Made by a program: the position numbers and the translations under genes
In this document: positions 9,400 to 49,012 of the stretch, in pieces
How positions within the stretch are numbered: the first letter of the stretch is position 1
How the letters are laid out: each line of letters opens with the position of its first letter
Source: Hysterium pulicare CBS 123377
Taxonomy: Eukaryota > Ascomycota > Dothideomycetes > Hysteriales > Hysteriaceae
Reading direction: 5' to 3'
Length of the DNA stretch: 64,000 nucleotides
NCBI GenBank assembly: GCA_000467715.1
Contig: AJFK01000980.1
Span: forward strand, 55,776-119,775
Notes under the pieces: generated by a model
What the model was told of the DNA's origin: nothing
Databases searched by the model: none
What the model saw: only the letters and a program-made list of their open reading frames with translations

Positions 9400-11418
9400 C
9401 TACCACCCAAACTTCTCAACACAAACCCTCACGTTCCTCCCCTCTCCCACCAACCCAGCACACGTATTCCTCACATCTCTAACCAACCCATCCGGTCCAC
9501 TAACCACCACACCCGCCCTCCTGCTCCTATCACCATCCCCACCTCCCTGAATCCACCCCCTCACAATGCCCCTAACATCAGGTCTGTCCACCTCAACCGT
9601 CGGCTCCGGGATCAAAACATCCAACCCCCACTCCCTCAACTCCTTCAATTTCTCCTCTTCCAACCACGAAAGATGAGCGCGGGAATGGACGATCCAGAGG
9701 AGTTTCACATGCTTCTTGTTTGTCTCTTGCGGAGCCAATTCAGCGTCTTGCGGAGAAGAAGATGATGATGATGATGATGATGGAGAGAGGAGAGACCAGA
9801 GAAGCGGATATGCGACCGCAATTCCGGAGCCGCCTGCTACGATGATGGACTGGTCGGAGGAATGGAGGACGTCCTCTGCGTGAGAAGAGCCGTAGGGTCC
9901 GTCTAGGCGGATGCGGGTTGTTGGGTGGGTGCGGGCGTAGGATGTTAGAGTGCGGGTGAAACCGGATTGGGGGCGGATGAGGAGGGAGAGCCAGGCGTGT
10001 TGGGTTGTTTCGGGGTCTGCTGAGGAGGGAGACGAGGTAGACGAAGGTGTTGGGGCGGCGGAATAGATGGTGAATGGGTGAGCTTGGAGAACGTGTGTAC
10101 GTGAGAGGGAGGGGATTGTGAGGAAGATGTGCGAGGTGGGGTTCCAGCCGTGTGAGATGGATTGGCTGAAAGGAGAGAGTTGGGAGAGAGGGGATGAGGA
10201 AGTTGGGATGTCCCAGTTTGAGGATAGCAGCACGGTTTCGTTGTCCTCCAGCACTGTGAGTGTTGCAGGCAGAGAAGCCGTTTTCAGACCTATCCGGAAA
10301 AGGAGACGGTCGATCAGGAAGATGCATAGGGCTATGCCGACATAAGGTCGAGTGGTGTGGTGGTGGAACCAAAGAAGAACTAGTCCAGCAACTTGAAGGA
10401 GGATATGCAGGACCAGAAACATCTCATACCATCGCTGCCGAAAGCTGCCCAAAGACGTAAAATAGATGAGCTCGTAAGCCACAAACGCAAATAATCCCAA
10501 AAGTACAAGTCTGACAGATAAAAATTTGGTAAGGGTAAAGCCGACATGTTGCAGCAAAGTACACCAAATACCCATCATGCCTACAAAGTGCAGGAATGCT
10601 TCAAAGCACATGAGTTCTCCAATACGACGGTGGAATATATTCTGTGATTCGTAGGAGTGCCCGGTGAGAAACTTGATAGGTTGGTTCTTCGCTGCGAAGA
10701 GGTAGAGGAGAGGGAGATTTGCAACAAAGACGAGACCAGCGCGATCAGCGAAGACGAAGAGGTAGCGTAGAGATAGGGGAATGTGATATAAGGTGTAGAA
10801 GATATTCAGGCCCATGAAGGCGAGGACGAAGAGGGAGACGGAGTTTGGCGGGAGGGTCTTGTTGATGATTGGAATTGGGCGAGGTTGATACATCATCCAG
10901 GAAACTATAGTATCAAATAGTCTTGAAGAAGTCTGCCCTTCAACTTTTCGCCGGGGTATCAGAGGCGTTCGTTCATCATCTCCATCCAGCTTCTTCGCCG
11001 CATCGGGAGGCGTCGCTGTACCTTCAATCGTACTGCTGGAGCTGGACCAAGCTTCGTCCGTCACTGATTCCACATTTTCAATTTCCGACTCTTCTCCAGT
11101 CTTCCTCCATACTTTTAGCGCGTTTACTCTTCTCCTTCTCGCCCATACTATCTTCTCTCCCCATTGCCATATTGCGAACAGCAATAATATGCCCAACAGT
11201 ACGAAATTATATGATATGATAAATCTCCTCGAAAACAATACGGCCTCAACTACTTTCCGAAATCTGGGATCTTTGCCTGGATCATCTAGGTTGATGTCCC
11301 CAGAGCTTGATACTGGAGAGGTTGGGTCGTTATCGGAGTACGGGAGTGTTGATGAAGCGGTGGCGGAAAGGGAAAATCGGAGGACCTCCCTCGCCCAGGA
11401 GAGAGGTATTCCGTCCAT
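9400..11418 (-). CDS. Ferric reductase-like transmembrane oxidoreductase (FRE family)
   Basis: A single intronless frame of 672 residues. FRE proteins pass electrons from cytosolic NADPH through FAD and two membrane haems to Fe3+ or Cu2+ outside the cell. A hydrophobic N-terminal segment (NFVLLGILLLFAIW) precedes the ferric-reductase core, where paired histidines for haem are visible in FHRRIGELMCFEAFLHF and FLVLHILLQVAGLVLLWFHHH. The flavin site is HPFTIYS, the nucleotide-binding fold contains GPYG and IVAGGSGIAVAYPLLW, and the C terminus has VVSGPDGLVRDVRN. A run of ten serines, encoded by an ATC/ATG-like triplet tract near 9757..9790, interrupts the NADPH domain in a loop. The metallothionein gene lies upstream on the same strand. 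Metal specificity cannot be read from sequence. Confidence 0.9.
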   Translation of the reverse strand: MDGIPLSWAREVLRFSLSATASSTLPYSDNDPTSPVSSSGDINLDDPGKDPRFRKVVEAVLFSRRFIISYNFVLLGILLLFAIWQWGEKIVWARRRRVNALKVWRKTGEESEIENVESVTDEAWSSSSSTIEGTATPPDAAKKLDGDDERTPLIPRRKVEGQTSSRLFDTIVSWMMYQPRPIPIINKTLPPNSVSLFVLAFMGLNIFYTLYHIPLSLRYLFVFADRAGLVFVANLPLLYLFAAKNQPIKFLTGHSYESQNIFHRRIGELMCFEAFLHFVGMMGIWCTLLQHVGFTLTKFLSVRLVLLGLFAFVAYELIYFTSLGSFRQRWYEMFLVLHILLQVAGLVLLWFHHHTTRPYVGIALCIFLIDRLLFRIGLKTASLPATLTVLEDNETVLLSSNWDIPTSSSPLSQLSPFSQSISHGWNPTSHIFLTIPSLSRTHVLQAHPFTIYSAAPTPSSTSSPSSADPETTQHAWLSLLIRPQSGFTRTLTSYARTHPTTRIRLDGPYGSSHAEDVLHSSDQSIIVAGGSGIAVAYPLLWSLLSPSSSSSSSSSPQDAELAPQETNKKHVKLLWIVHSRAHLSWLEEEKLKELREWGLDVLIPEPTVEVDRPDVRGIVRGWIQGGGDGDRSRRAGVVVSGPDGLVRDVRNTCAGLVGEGRNVRVCVEKFGW

Positions 11419-12122
11419 AATATATATTTAGATATGAAGAAGAAAGAGTTATTGTGGGTGTGAAGTTGATAGCATGTTTTATGGTGGAGGTAGATCCCGG
11501 ATTATCACTCACATGTAAGATACGCACACGAGTCAGTTACTTATAAGAGAATGATGCTGCGAGTCATTCACTATCTCTACTTCGTACCACCTCAAGTCAC
11601 CCTTATAACAACACATTCTTGCCTAAGTATGAAACAGTAAATTTTTGAACATTTCTACGCCCTAAAAGACTAAGGTTGGTTAGATCTATTCGAAAATCTT
11701 TCACAGGGCTCGGCTTTTGGAAATATGGCATGCGTAACTTCGAAGTTCACGAAGAGAATGGAGAATAGGCCATTATGGACTACGTTGCATTCGGTACATT
11801 ATTATCCTCTCATCATGAGAGCCCAGAGCTATCTGATATGCACTCCGAGTGCCAAAGTGTGATAACTCCAGCTGCTCGACTCTAGCATCGGTCAACACTC
11901 CTGATAAGCAGCGATCTATACAAAAATCTGTTTTCTCACACATGCCAAACAGTTCGGTACGAAGAGTTCGCATGGAGACAAGTAATTAATTATTCCGATA
12001 TACAGTTCGATTTGCTACAAGACTAGTTAACAGCCTCAAAATGATTGCATAGGACCACAAAAGTAGGTCCACTGCATGCCTCACAACCCGAATTCTCTCT
12101 TCGATGAATTGGCCAAACAAGC
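11419..12122. promoter_or_regulatory. Ferric reductase promoter region
   Basis: About 700 bp between the ferric reductase start and the metallothionein stop. It contains ATCTGATAT at 11831..11839, one base from the ATCWGATAA motif recognised by fungal iron GATA repressors (SreA/Sre1), and a second weaker CTGATAAG at about 11899..11906. Such near matches also occur by chance, so iron control is only a hypothesis. Confidence 0.3.
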
Positions 12123-12328
12123 TTAGTGCTACGAAGCGACTGTGTCAGCAATTTGCCTTTGGCGTTGGCTATGAGAAGCAGTGAGCACTCACGTTGCATG
12201 AGCCACAGTTGCATCCGTTGCAGTCACCACTGCAGGAGCAGGTCTGACAATTGCTATTTGAAGGAGAACTCCGTTAGTCTGATGTATCAATGAGCTGGAA
12301 TAGGGGGATCAACATACCATGAAGACAT
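12123..12328 (-). CDS. 25-residue copper-type metallothionein in three small exons
   Basis: Exons 12318..12328 (11 nt), 12193..12253 (61 nt) and 12123..12128 (6 nt) join to an open frame of 78 nt: 25 residues plus stop. Eight cysteines fall at residues 4, 6, 9, 11, 15, 18, 20 and 23, giving three Cys-X-Cys pairs in a Ser/Gly/Asn background (core CNCQTCSC ... CNGCNCGSCN), and there are no aromatic residues. Size and spacing match ascomycete copper metallothioneins such as the Neurospora protein, which chelate Cu(I) in thiolate clusters. Both introns have good signals: intron 1 GTATGT...GACTAAC...TAG, intron 2 GTGAGT...GCTGAC...TAG. A nearer acceptor in intron 2 (CACAG) lies only a few bases after the branch site; using it would give a longer tail without metal ligands. 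A TATA run lies about 120 bp upstream. Confidence 0.85.
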
Positions 12329-13053
12329 GATGAAGTTTTCGTAGTGCAAATTTTTGAGTGAGTTTTATGTTGGTGAGATTGGTAGTAGTAGTCGATAGGG
12401 TCTTCGTGTCCTGCTATCGTTTCCAAAAGTAAGTGGTAAGAGTTGTGGTATATATATACATTCAACTCTGGCACTGGCACATGTCAACCCAGCGGCATCC
12501 CAAGGGACTGGATAGCAAGCGGGGTCCAGCGCCGAGAAGGGGGAGTCGAAAGCGTGGCCCCAAATATGTGATGTTGATTAACCACCCACTGCAGGGCGTA
12601 AGGTCGAGAGCCGGGACTCGACTTGAGTTGAGGGGGTGTCTTATTATTGGCGCCGCCTTCTACGACGCATATGCAGAACTAATCGCACAAGCGGAATTCT
12701 CGTTTCTTGTAGGTAGTGCTTCGATCGTAGAAATCTATGGGGCATATCTATTTGAGGTTACAGGACATTTGAGTAAGATAGATGTCGGCCAAGATTCCCT
12801 AGATGAAGCTAGTATGAGAGTGAACGTAATAAGATAGACTCTGCCATACCTTAGAATGCTCGTAACGAATAGAAGCCAAATGAAATGTCAGGCGTTTGGG
12901 ATCTAATACAAATAGACGTGCGTTGATGAAACGAACCAATGCGCTGGTCAAAGTCATGCCGCTAGTCTAGAATTATATGGTTCTCCGCCAACCTATATAT
13001 ATATGATATCTGAATCAACGTACATATGATACAAGAGTCTGAGGGACATGGGA
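12329..13053. promoter_or_regulatory. Metallothionein promoter and peroxin 3' spacer
   Basis: The metallothionein lies on the minus strand and its upstream region is here. A perfect alternating TATATATATA run at 12449..12459 sits about 120 bp before the start codon and is the likely TATA box. I could not find a clear Ace1/Cuf1-type copper element by eye. The rest, up to the stop codon of the peroxin gene, shows nothing. Confidence 0.45.
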
Positions 13054-14770
13054 TCACCCCAGTTGCATCCTGAAATCATCGCCAAGACCCCACTCGCTTT
13101 CTCTACTGTTCTGCTGCTGTAAAGGAGTATGGACATCATCTTCGTCATCTCGCCCATCAAGATCGACACTACTAGAGCTTGCAATAGTCGCACTCCTATC
13201 ACTCGCAGGTCTACTTTTGCGGAACCAGCGATGTTTATGAGAAGACTTGGTACTACTGGCATCGGTATCGTCTTTAAGAGATGCGGCATACTCTGAAGGA
13301 GCCGTGTCAACTTTTGCCATATCTGTTTCAGGAAGAACACCGTCCGCGACTGGGTCCATTCTGGGCGTTGGGATAGGGGTGATTTCGGTAGATGGTGTAA
13401 CTTCTACCAATTCGGCATCTCTGTACCATTTTCTGCGACGAGTGTAGCGACCCCACCCATCTTGACCACGGCGACCATCTCGCCACTTCATGAGAAGTTA
13501 GTAATTTTAGAGTAGTGGGTCATAGGAAGAAGCGAACCTTGTTATCATAATATATCCATCCAGCATCGTCGCCCGAAGCCCCTTTCCCGGCCTTGTCGAC
13601 TGTAGAGTTTCCATCTGCTCCTTCGATCCGCCATTCACTATCCTGAACCCACCTCCACCTCGCCTGCCCTCCTTCGACTTCAGGCAATTGAAATTGGTCC
13701 TTTGGTGGCTGAGAGTTTAAGTGCTCATCAGTCCAGGAACCCCGCTCATAGGCAAGCATAGAAGAAGTCCATCCAATGCCTAGCCATCTCCGTTGATTTT
13801 CGTAGAGAGTAAAGGTGAATCGAATACCTGGAGAGTCTGGACGACGCTTCGCTGCAAGGGAAGCAGCAATCTCTTGCGCACTTTTGCGGCGCGGAGGCAA
13901 TCCGGGTGTTCCGTCCTTCTTATCGGCTTCCCATATTCCAAAGTCAAGTCCTGTGATCACTGCGCTTATTTGGCGTACAGTTTTTGAACGCCAAAGGATT
14001 GTGCGAGAGACTCTTGCCGGGCGGGAATGCCAACTGAGGACCACGGTTCCAACGGAAAGGACGACTCTCCTGGTTGTAATAATGTACAGTGGAGGGAGTG
14101 TGAGAATGATCCAGAGTGGAGTGACTACGAGTATTCGAATGAACAAGGTTGTTAAAGCAGGTCTCGTCGTCGCTGATGTTGCAGTGCGTTGTGTGGAAAG
14201 GAAGTCGGTCAACCGGAGGAATGGATCTAGTAGAATATTACATCGCGAAGTAAATAGTTTCAGAGTATCGACAATCTCCTCCAAGCTCTTGTGGTGCCTC
14301 GTGCTCCCCTCAGATTCTGCCCTTTTATGGCCCTTCTGACCTTTCTCACCTGTCCACCCTGTCGATGACAAAGGTGAATACCTCCGCGCATACATGCCCA
14401 GTATGAGTCCAAGTACTACAATCACTGGACCCGCCCATCTCGTCACAGCGCCACCATATAATACGATAGCCCAGAAGCTCGCAACAACAAGGAAGCTTTC
14501 CCAAGGATCGCCGGTTGTCCAAGTAAGAAGCCCGACGATCTTATTCAAGGGTAGAATGAAGGGATGAGAATATGCTAGCACGCGTGTAACCTGCGGTGGG
14601 GTCGCTGCTAGTAAGGGCGATTTCTGGTGGACGAGAATAGCGGAGCGAAGTTTCGTCTGGGGAGTTGCCTGTCCCAAAGTGGACGGTGAAAAGGCAGCAT
14701 ATGTGGGCGGATTGGGATCTCCACTTGGCTGTGGAGATGAGTTGTTGGTGGATCTTGCAGGGGTGGACAT
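13054..14770 (-). CDS. Pex23/Pex30-type peroxisomal membrane peroxin with dysferlin domain
   Basis: Two exons, 13538..14770 and 13054..13485, with a 52-bp intron holding a perfect TACTAAC branch site; 554 residues. These proteins reside at ER-peroxisome contacts and control peroxisome number and size. The N-terminal half is the Pex24p-type membrane domain (TRVLAYSHPFILPLNKIVGLL, FLVVASFWAIVLYGGAV, GPVIVVLGLILGMYARRYSPL, then LFIRILVVTPLWIILTLPPL). The C-terminal half is a DysF pair: FTFTLYENQRRWLGIGW (DysFN), then DSEWRIEG and GWIYYDNKWRDGRRG... WGRYTRRRKWYRDAELVE (DysFC, split by the intron). An acidic Ser-rich tail follows. Which of the yeast Pex28-32 paralogues it matches is not resolvable here. 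Confidence 0.9.
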
Positions 14771-15457
14771 ATGATCTAACCAGGGAGTATCTACTGGAAA
14801 TGTTAGGAGAAAGGGACTTCACGATAGTGGTGATAGTAAACTTGCCAAATGCTGCCATGCATGGAGTGGAACTGCGTCATCGCCAGGCGCGTTAGCATGT
14901 GCTTCGTTGAGGCTGAATGCAAGTAATGCGATTAGCCAGCTTCTTCACCTCGCCTTACCTGATACTTCAGTCAAGTATCAAAGGGAAATCTAAGCTAAGA
15001 TGCTCATGAGATGGCGATGTGAGAATGATGATCGGAGGGGCAGGTTTTCATGTGAAGGTCAGTGATACCGAGGACAAATAAGTAGGCGTCTTAGTTTATT
15101 CTTGTGAATTGCTTTACTATGTGGATAGACATGTCAGGCGCCAAATCATTTGCGTTGTGAATAATCGGAACGTGCTCGATGACTACTAAAGTACATCCCT
15201 GATTACCTTTCTATGTACCTACTTGTTGTTCTTCTACCTCTCGTCCGCTCCTACAGCATCCGTGATGCCGATCCCGTGCCAAGCACTTTCCAAGGTTTTC
15301 CCGAAGCCCTTCCGAATTGCACTCTGTATGAAATTTTGGAGCATCCTTTTCAACACAGCGGCAGGATCCATCGGCCATCGAACTCCACTTCCTCCTCAGC
15401 TTCAGCCCGCCTGGTCATTTCGTCCTCACTCTGGGTTCCTATTTAATTCTCAGCGTA
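14771..15457. other. Divergent promoter region, peroxin / PAM16
   Basis: About 690 bp between two divergent start codons. Short frames over 15213..15501 look like leader sequence of PAM16; none shows a domain. Confidence 0.4.
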
Positions 15458-43704: not shown

Positions 43705-44352
43705 AATGCTCTACTTTACTTATTATCATTGGAGCATTTGGTTAGATGTATAAAAGGGGCGGAGAATAAGTCGTTCGATATAGCATTTTTTGTTTTCTAG
43801 CAGGGCTGGTGAGTGGATGTGGTAGGGTAGGATAGGGAGCGGCTTTTGCATATAGAGTGGGGTTGGAAATCTTGCTTTCAGAATGTTTGGAAGACCGTTT
43901 CTTGACTATTCCGCTTCTTCGTTCCTATATTGACCTCGACCCTTGCGTGACGCGTCTATTCGTGCGTCACGTCTCTCAAGATATATGCATAGCGAATCTC
44001 ATTACATTACCCTAACACCGAATTCCAGGACCTACCGTAGAAATCAATTTGCAAGGAGTCTTTGATATGCTTTGTATAAGTATGTACCTTCAACTAACGA
44101 ATACAGGGAACTCTCCCGGCGAGACGAATAAAGCCACCCAATGCTCTTTCTCTAGTCTTCTGCTTTCCTGTCTCTATTTGGATAACTCCTCTAACCCAGC
44201 AAACAAAAAGAATACCACCATCTTCTATTTACGTCTATCTATACCTGGTACCGCTGCTCAAACGTCGTCTACACCCTTCCCATAAACCTAAGCTCGGGTA
44301 AGAAAACCCGGGAAAGGTAAAAATAAAAACCGCGAAAGTATTTCGTAATCGA
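43705..44352. other. Convergent spacer
   Basis: About 650 bp between converging stop codons, containing both 3' untranslated regions. A short near-palindrome around TGCGTGACGCGTCTATTCG occurs near 43945..43972. No gene is supported. Confidence 0.4.
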
Positions 44353-47300
44353 TCAGTCGTCCAGGGCAGGAGGTGGAAGTTGTTGTTGTTGTGGTTGTTG
44401 TTGTTCTGCCTCCTCATCTTCTTTCTCCTTACCCTTCGTCTCATTGTCGTCCTTTGCATCTCCCTTCCTGATGCCGAACGCATCCGGGACCTTCTCCGAG
44501 AGATTGATTGCGACGAAGGATTTGGGGAGTTTGACACTAGAGAGAACGGAATGTTAGCATGAAGTTTAGTCGTGAGGAGGAGAAAAGTAATGGAGAGTAT
44601 TTTCACGTACGTGTGGAATTTGGCACGGAGAGTTTCTATAACCTCTTCATAGCCATGATGGGCTGTGAGACTCCGACGAGGGGAGAAGCCGATCATGTGT
44701 TTGGAGTCGAGTTGGACGTCCAGTGGAGCAAATGTGTGGCAGCCGGGAGAAAGAGTGATTCGGATATTGTAATTGAAGGAATTAGGTTCATCGTCTGGTG
44801 TTGCGTTTTGCGATTCATACAGCTCGAAGCCTATCTGTGACAAATAGTCAAGCTCCGGGATGTTATTGCGCTCAATTTTCGTTTTGATACCGCCTTCCAA
44901 GATGCAGTTGAGCAGAGTATAGATATGTGACTCCTTGGTGAAGTAGAAGAACGTCTTTGGGGTGTCGGACGCCTGCAACTCTTCTAGGTCTTCTACGATC
45001 TCTTTCAAGAGTGGGAGAGATGTAAGAAGACCGATCTCCAATTTTTCGTCGTTGTCGATACCGTATTCCTGAGGACCAATATAATCGAAGAGAACTTTGC
45101 AGAGCCGGTACATTTCGCGCAGCTTGATTAAACGTGCATCGACCGTTGCTTTTGACGGCGCATTGCCAATTCCACCATAAAGAGCAAAGTACGATTCGTG
45201 CGGATACGAAGGAGTGTTGGATTTTGGAGGACTGGACTTTGGAGGACCGATTTCAGATCGACGTCTGAAGCCCATACGTTGCGCTATGTTGCCTCGCTCA
45301 GGTGGTTTCTGCTCCGAGATTTTCTCTGTACCTGATCGGTCTTTCTGCTCCGGCTTAGAACTAGACTCCGTTCTCTGGGTTGACGGTTGTTTTGCTTGAG
45401 GATCATTCAACTGTTTGGGGTCACTCTCTACTACACTCACTTCATCCAAGAAACTTGAATCTGGAGTGAACACCCATTCGAGGAATTGTCGGTTATGCAG
45501 GGCATCGAATTTCATAGTATCGTACAGTTCGGAGATTTTGCTTGGGTCCACTCTATCCGCATCGTGGAACTCTTTGAAGAGCTTCTCCCAGCGTTCTTTG
45601 AAAAGCTCCGGCCCCTCTCCACAACACCAACGAGCCTGAATAGAACTAGAGGCGGTGATTTGGGCAAGTGCATGGCCTATGGGTGACGGTCCTGCGCTAG
45701 AGGGGCTGGTGGGATGGCCAGCAATGGCGTTGAGCGTTGACGCAGCCCCCGCAGGTTCGAGCTTCTTGAAATTGTGGTTCATTACCTTTTGGTGGAACTT
45801 CATCAGATCCACCACCTGCCTGACGACAAGATAAGGCTCTGGGAAATCTTCCTTGGGCCAAGCGAATTGTGGAGGTGCCTTGATACCCTCTCGCAACAAC
45901 GGCTTGAGCTTCTTTTTGACTTTGTCCATCTCGTCTTTTGCTGCATTTGAGTCGTCTAGAAGATCCTTGCGGATATCTATGTGGTCGGCCGGGAAATTTT
46001 CTTGCTCGAGGAATGCTGCTGCGAATATTTGAGCGCTCGTTGTAACTCGTCGTTCTGAGCTGCTAAAGACAGATACATCATCTAGTACGTCTCGATTCAG
46101 GATCTTCAGGTCGTTTCTGAAGGCTTTGCCCATTTCTTGAGCTTGGTAGCGTGCCGAGTGAGTCGGCTCTCCACCCCATTTGATAATTAATTGTAACTTG
46201 TCCAGAATCAAATTATTCTCGACGGCGGAAATCCGTGACATTGTAACGCCAGACATAGAGTCACTCCTCTTCTGGATCCAGTCCGCCGATAATTCCGATT
46301 CATTTTGAACTGCGGTTTGGTCACCTGTAGCAGGCTTCTTTTCCCTCTCTGGTGAGGCGTTAAGGGGAACACCGGGGGGCAATTCGTCTTTCCTTCTCTT
46401 ACGAAACAAAGGTTTAATCTGAACTTTGGTGCCCGGCCAGGACCCTTTCTTGTTCAAGTATATCCTCAATTCACGCAACTTGTTTGGATCTTCTACGCCT
46501 TCCTCAATTGCCTTTTTGACAGCTTCGCCGACGCTGTTCAATGCTGCTTCCCCAATGAGAAGGACTTCTTCCTGATGGCCTTTCAAAAGATCGACGAAAG
46601 GTTTCGTGTGAAAAGTATACTTGAACTTCTGTTTCGGTGTACGGTCGGCATGTCTAATAACGGAAACCATGCCTTTTAATCGCCACTGAGCTTTCGAAGC
46701 GGGTGGTGGAACGGCGGCAATCTGATCCTCCGAATGTGAAGTCTGGATATTGAGGGCAAGCTCTTTCTCTGAGACGGGTGGCGGGAGGACTAAATCAGGC
46801 TCAGACATCGGAGCACTCGTTGTCGGGTTTCCATATGGTTTTTCGAAAGTCGGAGAATTCATGATTGGTGTCGTACTCATCGATGCTTCGGGTGAAGAGG
46901 TAACATTGCCTGAACCATGTCGACCAGGTAAGTGAGGATGAGTCAGTCTTGTCATGCTTGGGGACTTGAATATGCCCTTTAGAGTAGAACGGTGGGCCCC
47001 GGCGGTGGTTTTGCGTGAAGGCGCAGAAATGTTCGCATCTGTTACGGGTATGATGTCCTGAGGGTCGGAAGGAGCTTGTTTCCCAGCTTTCTGCTCTTTG
47101 CGTTGAGTCTCTTTGGTAAACATCTCCTTCAATATATCTGCAGCCTTGTCGTAGTAGCTCTCGTTATCCTTGACAAAGCTCCACCCGTTAACGTCAATGA
47201 CATAGCTCTGATCACCCGTACGGAGGAGATCAAAACCGCAGACTCTCTGACCAAAGCCCTCGGAAATCCTCGAAGCCATTGTTGCTTCTTCTTGGGTAAG

Positions 47301-49012
47301 TCTGGTTACATATCGCACTTCCTTGCCACTTGGATTGCGCTTGACCAGGCCGTCGACTACCGGAGATTTTCTCGTCTCAGCATGACAGAAATTAGGTCCA
47401 ACAGTGTATGCCTTGACGTCTTCTGCATTCTCGACTTGTAGAAACTGCTCGTATATGTAGCTGCTTGTCGGGTCTGTGATGCACCTGGGTTGATTCAAGC
47501 TTGGATCCTTCTCCGAGCTCTTGTTGTTGATTTTTCTGAAAAGTCTACGCCCCCCTCCACCATGGCTATTTGGGAAGTATATGTTGATGTTGTGGTCTTC
47601 ACCACTAACTGGCTTCTCAACGAATGGTTTTGTTAGCTTGATGCCGTCCACCACAATTGTATCGCCATCATCGAGCAGTTCGATATTTTCCGGCGCCGGC
47701 ATACCGCCACCTGTCCCATCCTCCGGGCCAGGCAATTGTACGCCAGTTCTTTTGAACACTGCCTTGGCAAACTCGGCGGATTGCAACCTTGGTCCTCCAT
47801 CTCTATTCACCTCGACACGCTTAGGTGTCGGAACTTGCAAATTGTCGAGTATTCGGAGGCAAAGTCGGCGATCCCAGAGCACTTGCTGCATAGGCAAGTC
47901 ATTGACACAGAAAGGTTTGCGTAGTCGAGTATATGCAATTGCTTTGTCCAATGGGAATCCGTCCGAGAAAAAGGAGATTAAGAAGTCACAAACGGGCCAG
48001 TTTTCCACGTCCTCATCCAGAATGATTTTGTCGCCGAAGATATGAACTTCAAACTCATCGATGAGCTTTCCAAAAATGTTTCTTGCGGGTTTACTTCGTG
48101 CCTTGGATTCCAAGGCACAGACTCCGATAATGCCCTTGCTGGACTTCTTCCCTGCTGGATCCCTCATGTCCCTGCTTCCAGGGCTACTACTGGTCCCCGT
48201 GCTCCCACTTATTCTTCTCTGCGTGGCTGTCCGACTTCGAGAGCGGCGTGGCTGTTGTGTTCGAGGGGGTTGTCCCAATTGCGGGGAAGTAGAAGCGTAG
48301 GTTGGAGCAGCATTGGGAGTGGGCGTCATTGCGTTCTGTTGTGTTTGCTCATTTGGGAACAAATATTGTGATGGCGACAGGCCGAGGCTGCCGTTCTGGC
48401 TCGAGGTTGTGACTGACAGGGAGGAAGTGGCCGTTGTTGTGCCTTGAGAAGGAACTTCCATTCTACCTGCGGTGATGGTCAATCAAGCGAACACTATCTT
48501 TTAGTAGAACTCATACCTTCAGGCTCCGACTCAGTAAGTGAACTTGGTCCGCTCAGGCCTCTTGTGCCTGTGTAGATTGCGGATCCAAGGGAGTAAAGGG
48601 ACGAAAAGGACATGCGATTCGATTCTATGTCTGGCTCAGATCTGGCTTGGCGAATGGCCGCATCTGGTAGCGTGAGGGTCTGAGCTGAGGAGCCAATTCC
48701 GGCTCGTGAAGGCTCTAAGGTTGGAGTTGTATCAGTGTCTTTCAGGCCATGCCCTGTGATTACATTGGTGTCAGAAGCCTTGGAGGGCCGCCTGGATGGA
48801 TTGAACTGCCTCGCAACAGCCTTGGAGGCCGGCGGGGGCATTGAGATACTGGCTCTTTCCACATTACTGCTGGTAGTGTCCGGTTCGGCAGAACGAGCCT
48901 TCCTGCTTGAAGCTGGGGAGACATTTCCCGAGCCCAGGTAATGAGGGGACGTCCAAGATCTTGTACTTTCAGCACTGACAGTACGTGAGAGCTGCTCCAT
49001 CGAGGCTGGCAC
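44353..49012 (-). CDS. VIP1: Inositol hexakisphosphate/diphosphoinositol kinase Vip1 (Asp1)
   Basis: Three exons, 48517..49012, 44611..48466 and 44353..44536; 1,511 residues. Vip1/PPIP5K makes 1-diphosphoinositol phosphates from IP6 or 5-IP7 and carries a phosphatase-like second half that removes them. After about 280 low-complexity residues the ATP-grasp kinase begins ([19 protein letters not shown]), with [20 protein letters not shown] and the [11 protein letters not shown] metal-binding stretch. The histidine acid phosphatase-like half starts at about residue 768 with [17 protein letters not shown]. Its end reads [20 protein letters not shown]. The last exon adds a Gln-rich tail. An unspliced reading of the last intron would stay open for over 100 codons, but that peptide lacks coding character. 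Divergent from UTP21. Confidence 0.94.

What the first reader, a model, noticed from the sequence alone, without database searches (positions are those of the whole stretch)
12123..12328. 25-residue metallothionein gene made of 11-, 61- and 6-nt exons
Seen: three tiny exons with strong splice signals join into an 8-Cys, Cys-X-Cys peptide with no aromatic residues. Known: ascomycete copper metallothioneins are about 25 residues and are routinely missed by gene callers. The last exon codes only one residue plus the stop.
Basis: partly seen in the sequence, partly recalled or inferred. Interest (0 to 1): 0.8.

Follow-up and report, generated by a model that had tools for sequence, protein, structure and literature searches.

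The report
Tiny three-exon fungal metallothionein gene
A fungal genome holds a very small split gene that probably makes a 25-residue metal-binding peptide, an ordinary kind of gene, though its cysteine pattern and closing histidine look more like a cadmium-binding peptide than the copper-binding kind first proposed; none of this has been tested in the laboratory.

Summary
On the minus strand, 12328..12123, three coding segments (11, 61, 6 nt) and two 64-nt GT..AG introns join into MSSCNCQTCSCSGDCNGCNCGSCNH: 25 residues, 8 Cys, 3 CXC, no aromatics, one His. Intron-aware Cys-rich gene models occur at this one locus in the window and in 0 of 3380 simulated windows. It is very probably a real metallothionein (MT) gene, and the only copy found in the 37.2-Mb genome. 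The neighbouring peroxin gene points to a Dothideomycete. 'Copper' is not supported: the Cys spacing differs from the published Neurospora/Agaricus Cu-MT pattern, and four recalled copper/metal-element patterns have no match in 700 bp upstream. The closest match I know is the 8-Cys, cadmium-specific MT of Heliscus lugdunensis; its sequence as I recall it has the same Cys spacing and ends Cys-X-His, but no held text gave it. If right, this supports the odd last exon, whose only residue is that His. No RNA, orthologue or binding evidence was available. New member of a known kind.

The parts
12318..12328 (-). first coding segment, ATGTCTTCATG, ends inside a Cys codon (TG|C)
12254..12317 (-). intron 1, 64 nt, GTATGT...CTAAC...AAATAG, branch A to last G 20 nt
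12193..12253 (-). internal exon, 61 nt; completes the first Cys codon and codes the other seven Cys
12129..12192 (-). intron 2, 64 nt, GTGAGT...CTGAC...CGTAG, branch A to last G 16 nt; a nearer AG at 5 nt
12123..12128 (-). last coding segment, CAC TAA: one His and the stop
   Evidence: terminal Cys-X-His also in the recalled Heliscus MT
12449..12458 (-). TATATATATA, likely TATA box, 130 nt before the ATG; the 120 nt between it and the ATG hold no upstream ATG
   Evidence: function inferred

Best explanation
A functional gene for a 25-residue fungal metallothionein. After both introns are removed, the peptide, presumably cytosolic, wraps its eight Cys thiolates round a few soft d10 metal ions and keeps them from damaging the cell. 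Shown here: the open spliced frame, the Cys pattern, the His and the rarity. Inferred: transcription, splicing, location and metal binding. The pattern CXC-X2-CXC-X3-C-X2-CXC-X2-C with a terminal His most likely gives a divalent-metal (Cd/Zn) clamp of the Heliscus lugdunensis kind, in which the His, added by the last exon, can serve as an extra ligand. Likelihoods: real MT gene about 0.93; divalent (Cd/Zn) rather than copper as main cargo about 0.6.
For: The Heliscus MT is an eight-Cys small MT (PMC13107397 passage); its 'histidine residue' and 'cadmium-specific' nature are in a title cited by PMC8003315; 'cadmium detoxification' as its major function in a title cited by PMC7796288; 'cadmium induces a novel metallothionein' in a title cited by PMC4685053. 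Recalled Heliscus sequence: same Cys spacing, 15 of 25 residues identical with a Met added, same terminal C-X-H.
Against: No RNA or protein data. No Pfam match and no PDB match. The protein search found no relative, but only a 42-residue alternative splice product could be searched, and the method needs shared 5-residue words. The Heliscus sequence is recalled; two text searches that included pieces of it found none. Retaining intron 2 gives a rival 31-residue product with 9 Cys. A review passage says the Fusarium oxysporum MT mt1 affects resistance to Cu, Zn and Cd and is regulated by Zn rather than Cd (PMC9036806), so metal preference varies among ascomycete MTs.
Confidence: 0.6

Rival explanations
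1. Copper metallothionein: a fungi-I MT induced by copper through a copper-fist factor, holding Cu(I) ions in a thiolate cluster.
For: Size and general make-up as in the 26-residue N. crassa MT; 5 of its 7 Cys positions (4, 6, 18, 20, 23) coincide without gaps; two partial copper-fist matches over the family cut-off in the genome.
Against: The published Cu-MT spacing is not met and there is an eighth Cys. No match to 4 recalled ACE1/Cuf1/CuRE/MRE-type patterns in 700 bp upstream; these come from other organisms, so this is weak.
Confidence: 0.33
2. A real MT gene, but the natural product ends differently, for example by retaining intron 2 (31 residues, tail VSAHCFS, 9 Cys) or by another acceptor.
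For: The retained form is open and stops inside the intron; other AGs exist, one nearer and many further downstream.
Against: Intron 2 has a full donor, branch site and acceptor; the spliced tail NH resembles the recalled Heliscus SH tail; the retained tail carries an aromatic residue.
Confidence: 0.12
3. Chance Cys-rich reading with no gene.
For: No expression or orthologue data; Cys-dense short stretches alone occur in 2-4 of 60 simulated windows, and strict intron motifs are no commoner than in simulations.
Against: 0 of 3380 simulated windows give the full model; regular MT spacing with small polar and Gly spacers; TATA and clean leader.
Confidence: 0.05

Closest known systems
Heliscus lugdunensis (Neonectria lugdunensis) Cd-specific metallothionein
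   Same: Small, eight Cys (PMC13107397 passage), a His (title only). By recalled sequence: identical Cys spacing, terminal Cys-X-His, 15 of 25 residues identical.
   Different: Known from a Hypocreales fungus, whereas the window is from a Dothideomycete by its peroxin relatives. Metal preference here is unknown.
Neurospora crassa copper metallothionein (P02807, Binz and Kagi family 8)
   Same: 26 residues, CXC-rich, no aromatics; 5 Cys positions coincide.
   Different: Seven Cys with X5 between the first two CXC pairs, no His, ends GSK.
Agaricus crocodilinus AcMT2
   Same: Short MT gene in three exons with introns of about 50 bp (PMC12508003, passages and section 19).
   Different: Basidiomycete; heptaCys motif C-x4-C-x-C-x2,3-C-x-C-x4-C-x-C.

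Membership tests
Metallothionein superfamily (general) | very small, Cys-rich, CXC motifs, no aromatic residues | tested here: met
   predicted peptide: 25 aa, 8 Cys (32%), 3 CXC, 0 aromatics
Metallothionein superfamily (general) | binds d10 metal ions through thiolates | not testable with these tools
   needs recombinant peptide
Neurospora/Agaricus-type Cu-MT (family 8 prototype) | 7-Cys pattern X2-CXC-X5-CXC-X3-CXC-X2-C-X3 | tested here: not met
   spacing 1,2,1,3,2,1,2 with 8 Cys against 1,5,1,3,1,2
Neurospora/Agaricus-type Cu-MT (family 8 prototype) | copper as native metal | not testable with these tools
   no expression or binding data
Heliscus-type Cd-MT | eight Cys in a small MT | tested here: met
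   8 Cys here; Heliscus MT has eight (passage, PMC13107397)
Heliscus-type Cd-MT | a His residue | tested here: met
   predicted His25; title of Perinelli et al. 2020 seen in a reference list
Heliscus-type Cd-MT | same Cys spacing and terminal Cys-X-His | tested here: inconclusive
   identical to the recalled sequence; that sequence was in no held text
Heliscus-type Cd-MT | induced by and specific for cadmium | not testable with these tools
   needs culture and binding work

The most novel reading that the evidence does not exclude
A cadmium/zinc-selective, His-capped MT type, biochemically known to me from one aquatic hypocrealean fungus, is an old gene of filamentous ascomycetes. Its selectivity-tuning His sits alone in the last coding exon, so splicing intron 2 (His-ended form) or retaining it (a nine-Cys form without that end) could switch the peptide's metal preference.
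Probability: 0.08. Interest if true: 0.7.

Novelty: new member of a known kind. Interest (0 to 1): 0.36.

Why it matters
Very short spliced MT genes escape gene callers, so fungal metal-handling inventories are likely incomplete. If the match to the Heliscus Cd-MT is confirmed, a 'cadmium-specific' MT would exist in two ascomycete classes, and one could ask whether it arose under pollution or is an old zinc/cadmium buffer.

Tried and rejected
Pfam and PDB searches of the peptide: nothing. Protein database with a 42-residue alternative splice product: nothing. Own-genome search for a processed copy by one exact 29-nt spliced word: 0; for paralogues by exon-2 DNA and by peptide: only the locus itself (diverged or more finely split copies could be missed); with the N. 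crassa MT: nothing, but without a positive control, and it does not find this locus either. Phytochelatin synthase family: nothing, and the 14 control genomes gave nothing either, so absence is not shown. Bacterial promoter scan: not applicable to a fungus. Upstream pattern scan: no match to 4 copper/metal patterns or to the heat-shock pattern; 1 YAP1-like, 2 STRE, 2 GATA and 3 CCAAT matches, with no chance control, not pursued. Paper searches for the Heliscus sequence or MT gene structures gave no MT sequence with this spacing in what I read (listings; passages of nine papers and one or more sections of two). Structure prediction was not run: the peptide is below 30 residues.

Full report
What is there. 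The joined frame reads MSSCNCQTCSCSGDCNGCNCGSCNH and stop. It has 8 Cys at positions 4, 6, 9, 11, 15, 18, 20 and 23, three CXC pairs, no aromatic residue and one His at the end. The first intron splits a Cys codon; the second falls between codons and leaves a single His before the stop. The 11-nt and 6-nt figures describe coding parts only, since both terminal exons must carry untranslated sequence. On both strands, five stop-to-stop frames of 40 codons or more overlap the locus (43-69 codons); they were not searched further.

Is it more than chance? The parts alone are not striking. Strict donor, branch and acceptor triplets are 42 in the window, inside the range of 40 simulations (mean 31, 19-46). 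Seven or more Cys in 20 stop-free codons occurs at 2 places in the window and in 2, 3 and 4 of 60 simulated windows at Markov orders 1, 2 and 5. Together they are striking: models with an ATG, one or two strict introns and a product of 15-60 aa with at least 7 Cys and 25% Cys occur at one locus in the window and in 0 of 3380 order-2 simulations. The criteria were set after seeing the peptide, so the rarity is somewhat overstated.

Which splice sites? Intron 1 runs GTATGT...CTAAC...AAATAG, with 20 nt from branch A to the last G. Intron 2 runs GTGAGT...CTGAC...CGTAG, with 16 nt. Intron 2 has a nearer AG only 5 nt after the branch A, normally too close to be used (general knowledge); using it would give a 62-residue product with Trp and Phe. 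In the neighbouring peroxin gene, where protein homology places one intron, the distance is 12 nt by my reading of the printed sequence, though that intron's donor (GTTCGC) is weaker than the motif I used. Retention of intron 2 would give 31 residues with 9 Cys and cannot be excluded.

Surroundings. A TATATATATA lies 130 nt upstream of the ATG, and the 120 nt between them contain no ATG. The next long frame downstream on the same strand (9400-11427) is a ferric-reductase-like protein, and upstream lies a Pex24p-family peroxin. Among the 120 relatives of the peroxin listed (of 1673 found), the best is from Zopfia rhizophila, 86% identical, class Dothideomycetes; the next, Clohesyomyces aquaticus at 84%, is also a Dothideomycete by general knowledge. 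Exon 2 is found once in the 37.2-Mb genome by DNA and by peptide search, and one spliced word gave no processed copy. Two partial copper-fist matches exist.

What it most likely does. A peptide of this make-up is a metallothionein: it binds soft metal ions in thiolate clusters. The Cu-MT pattern in print is X2-CXC-X5-CXC-X3-CXC-X2-C-X3 with seven Cys (PMC4755600, passages and introduction read). The peptide here is CXC-X2-CXC-X3-C-X2-CXC-X2-C with eight, so that membership test fails, although five positions coincide. The closest match I know is the MT of the aquatic fungus Heliscus lugdunensis. A passage in PMC13107397 calls it an eight-Cys small MT. [quoted passage not shown] PMC13107397 cites the same DOI for the eight-Cys Heliscus MT). 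Titles naming cadmium detoxification as its major function and cadmium as inducer were seen in the reference lists of PMC7796288 and PMC4685053. The two original papers I looked up are not held. The sequence as I recall it has the same Cys spacing, ends in Cys-Ser-His against Cys-Asn-His here, and is identical at 15 of 25 positions once a Met is added. Text searches that included pieces of it did not find them, so this rests on memory. If right, it supports both the last exon and a Cd/Zn rather than Cu preference.

Against this reading. There is no RNA, no orthologue and no binding data. Family and structure libraries found nothing, and the protein database could only be asked with a longer alternative product. 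Absence of copper-type elements upstream rests on recalled consensus patterns from other organisms and is weak evidence. Metal preference varies among ascomycete MTs: a review passage says Fusarium oxysporum mt1 affects Cu, Zn and Cd resistance and is regulated by Zn (PMC9036806). Thiol-rich MTs often bind Cu(I) too (general knowledge), so copper keeps about one chance in three.

Novelty. It is a new member of a known kind. Small three-exon MT genes are known in a basidiomycete (PMC12508003), and short exons are a known cause of MT misannotation (PMC4755600). Whether this gene is already annotated could not be checked. The interest lies in a possible second lineage for a cadmium-type MT and in the lone His exon.

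Noticed in passing
9400-11427 (-): Ferric-reductase-like protein (PF01794, PF08022, PF08030), the next long frame downstream of the MT gene on the same strand; a metal-handling neighbour, possibly coincidental.
   Followed up: partly
about 13060-14794 (-): Pex24p-family peroxin in two homologous blocks separated by an intron with donor GTTCGC, placed by homology to Zopfia rhizophila P0001; useful as a synteny anchor.
   Followed up: partly
44345-44440 (+): Stretch with 7 Cys in 20 codons (SCCCCGCCC); it lies on the strand opposite the long minus-strand frame 44235-48482 and looks like the reverse reading of a repetitive coding end.
   Followed up: no
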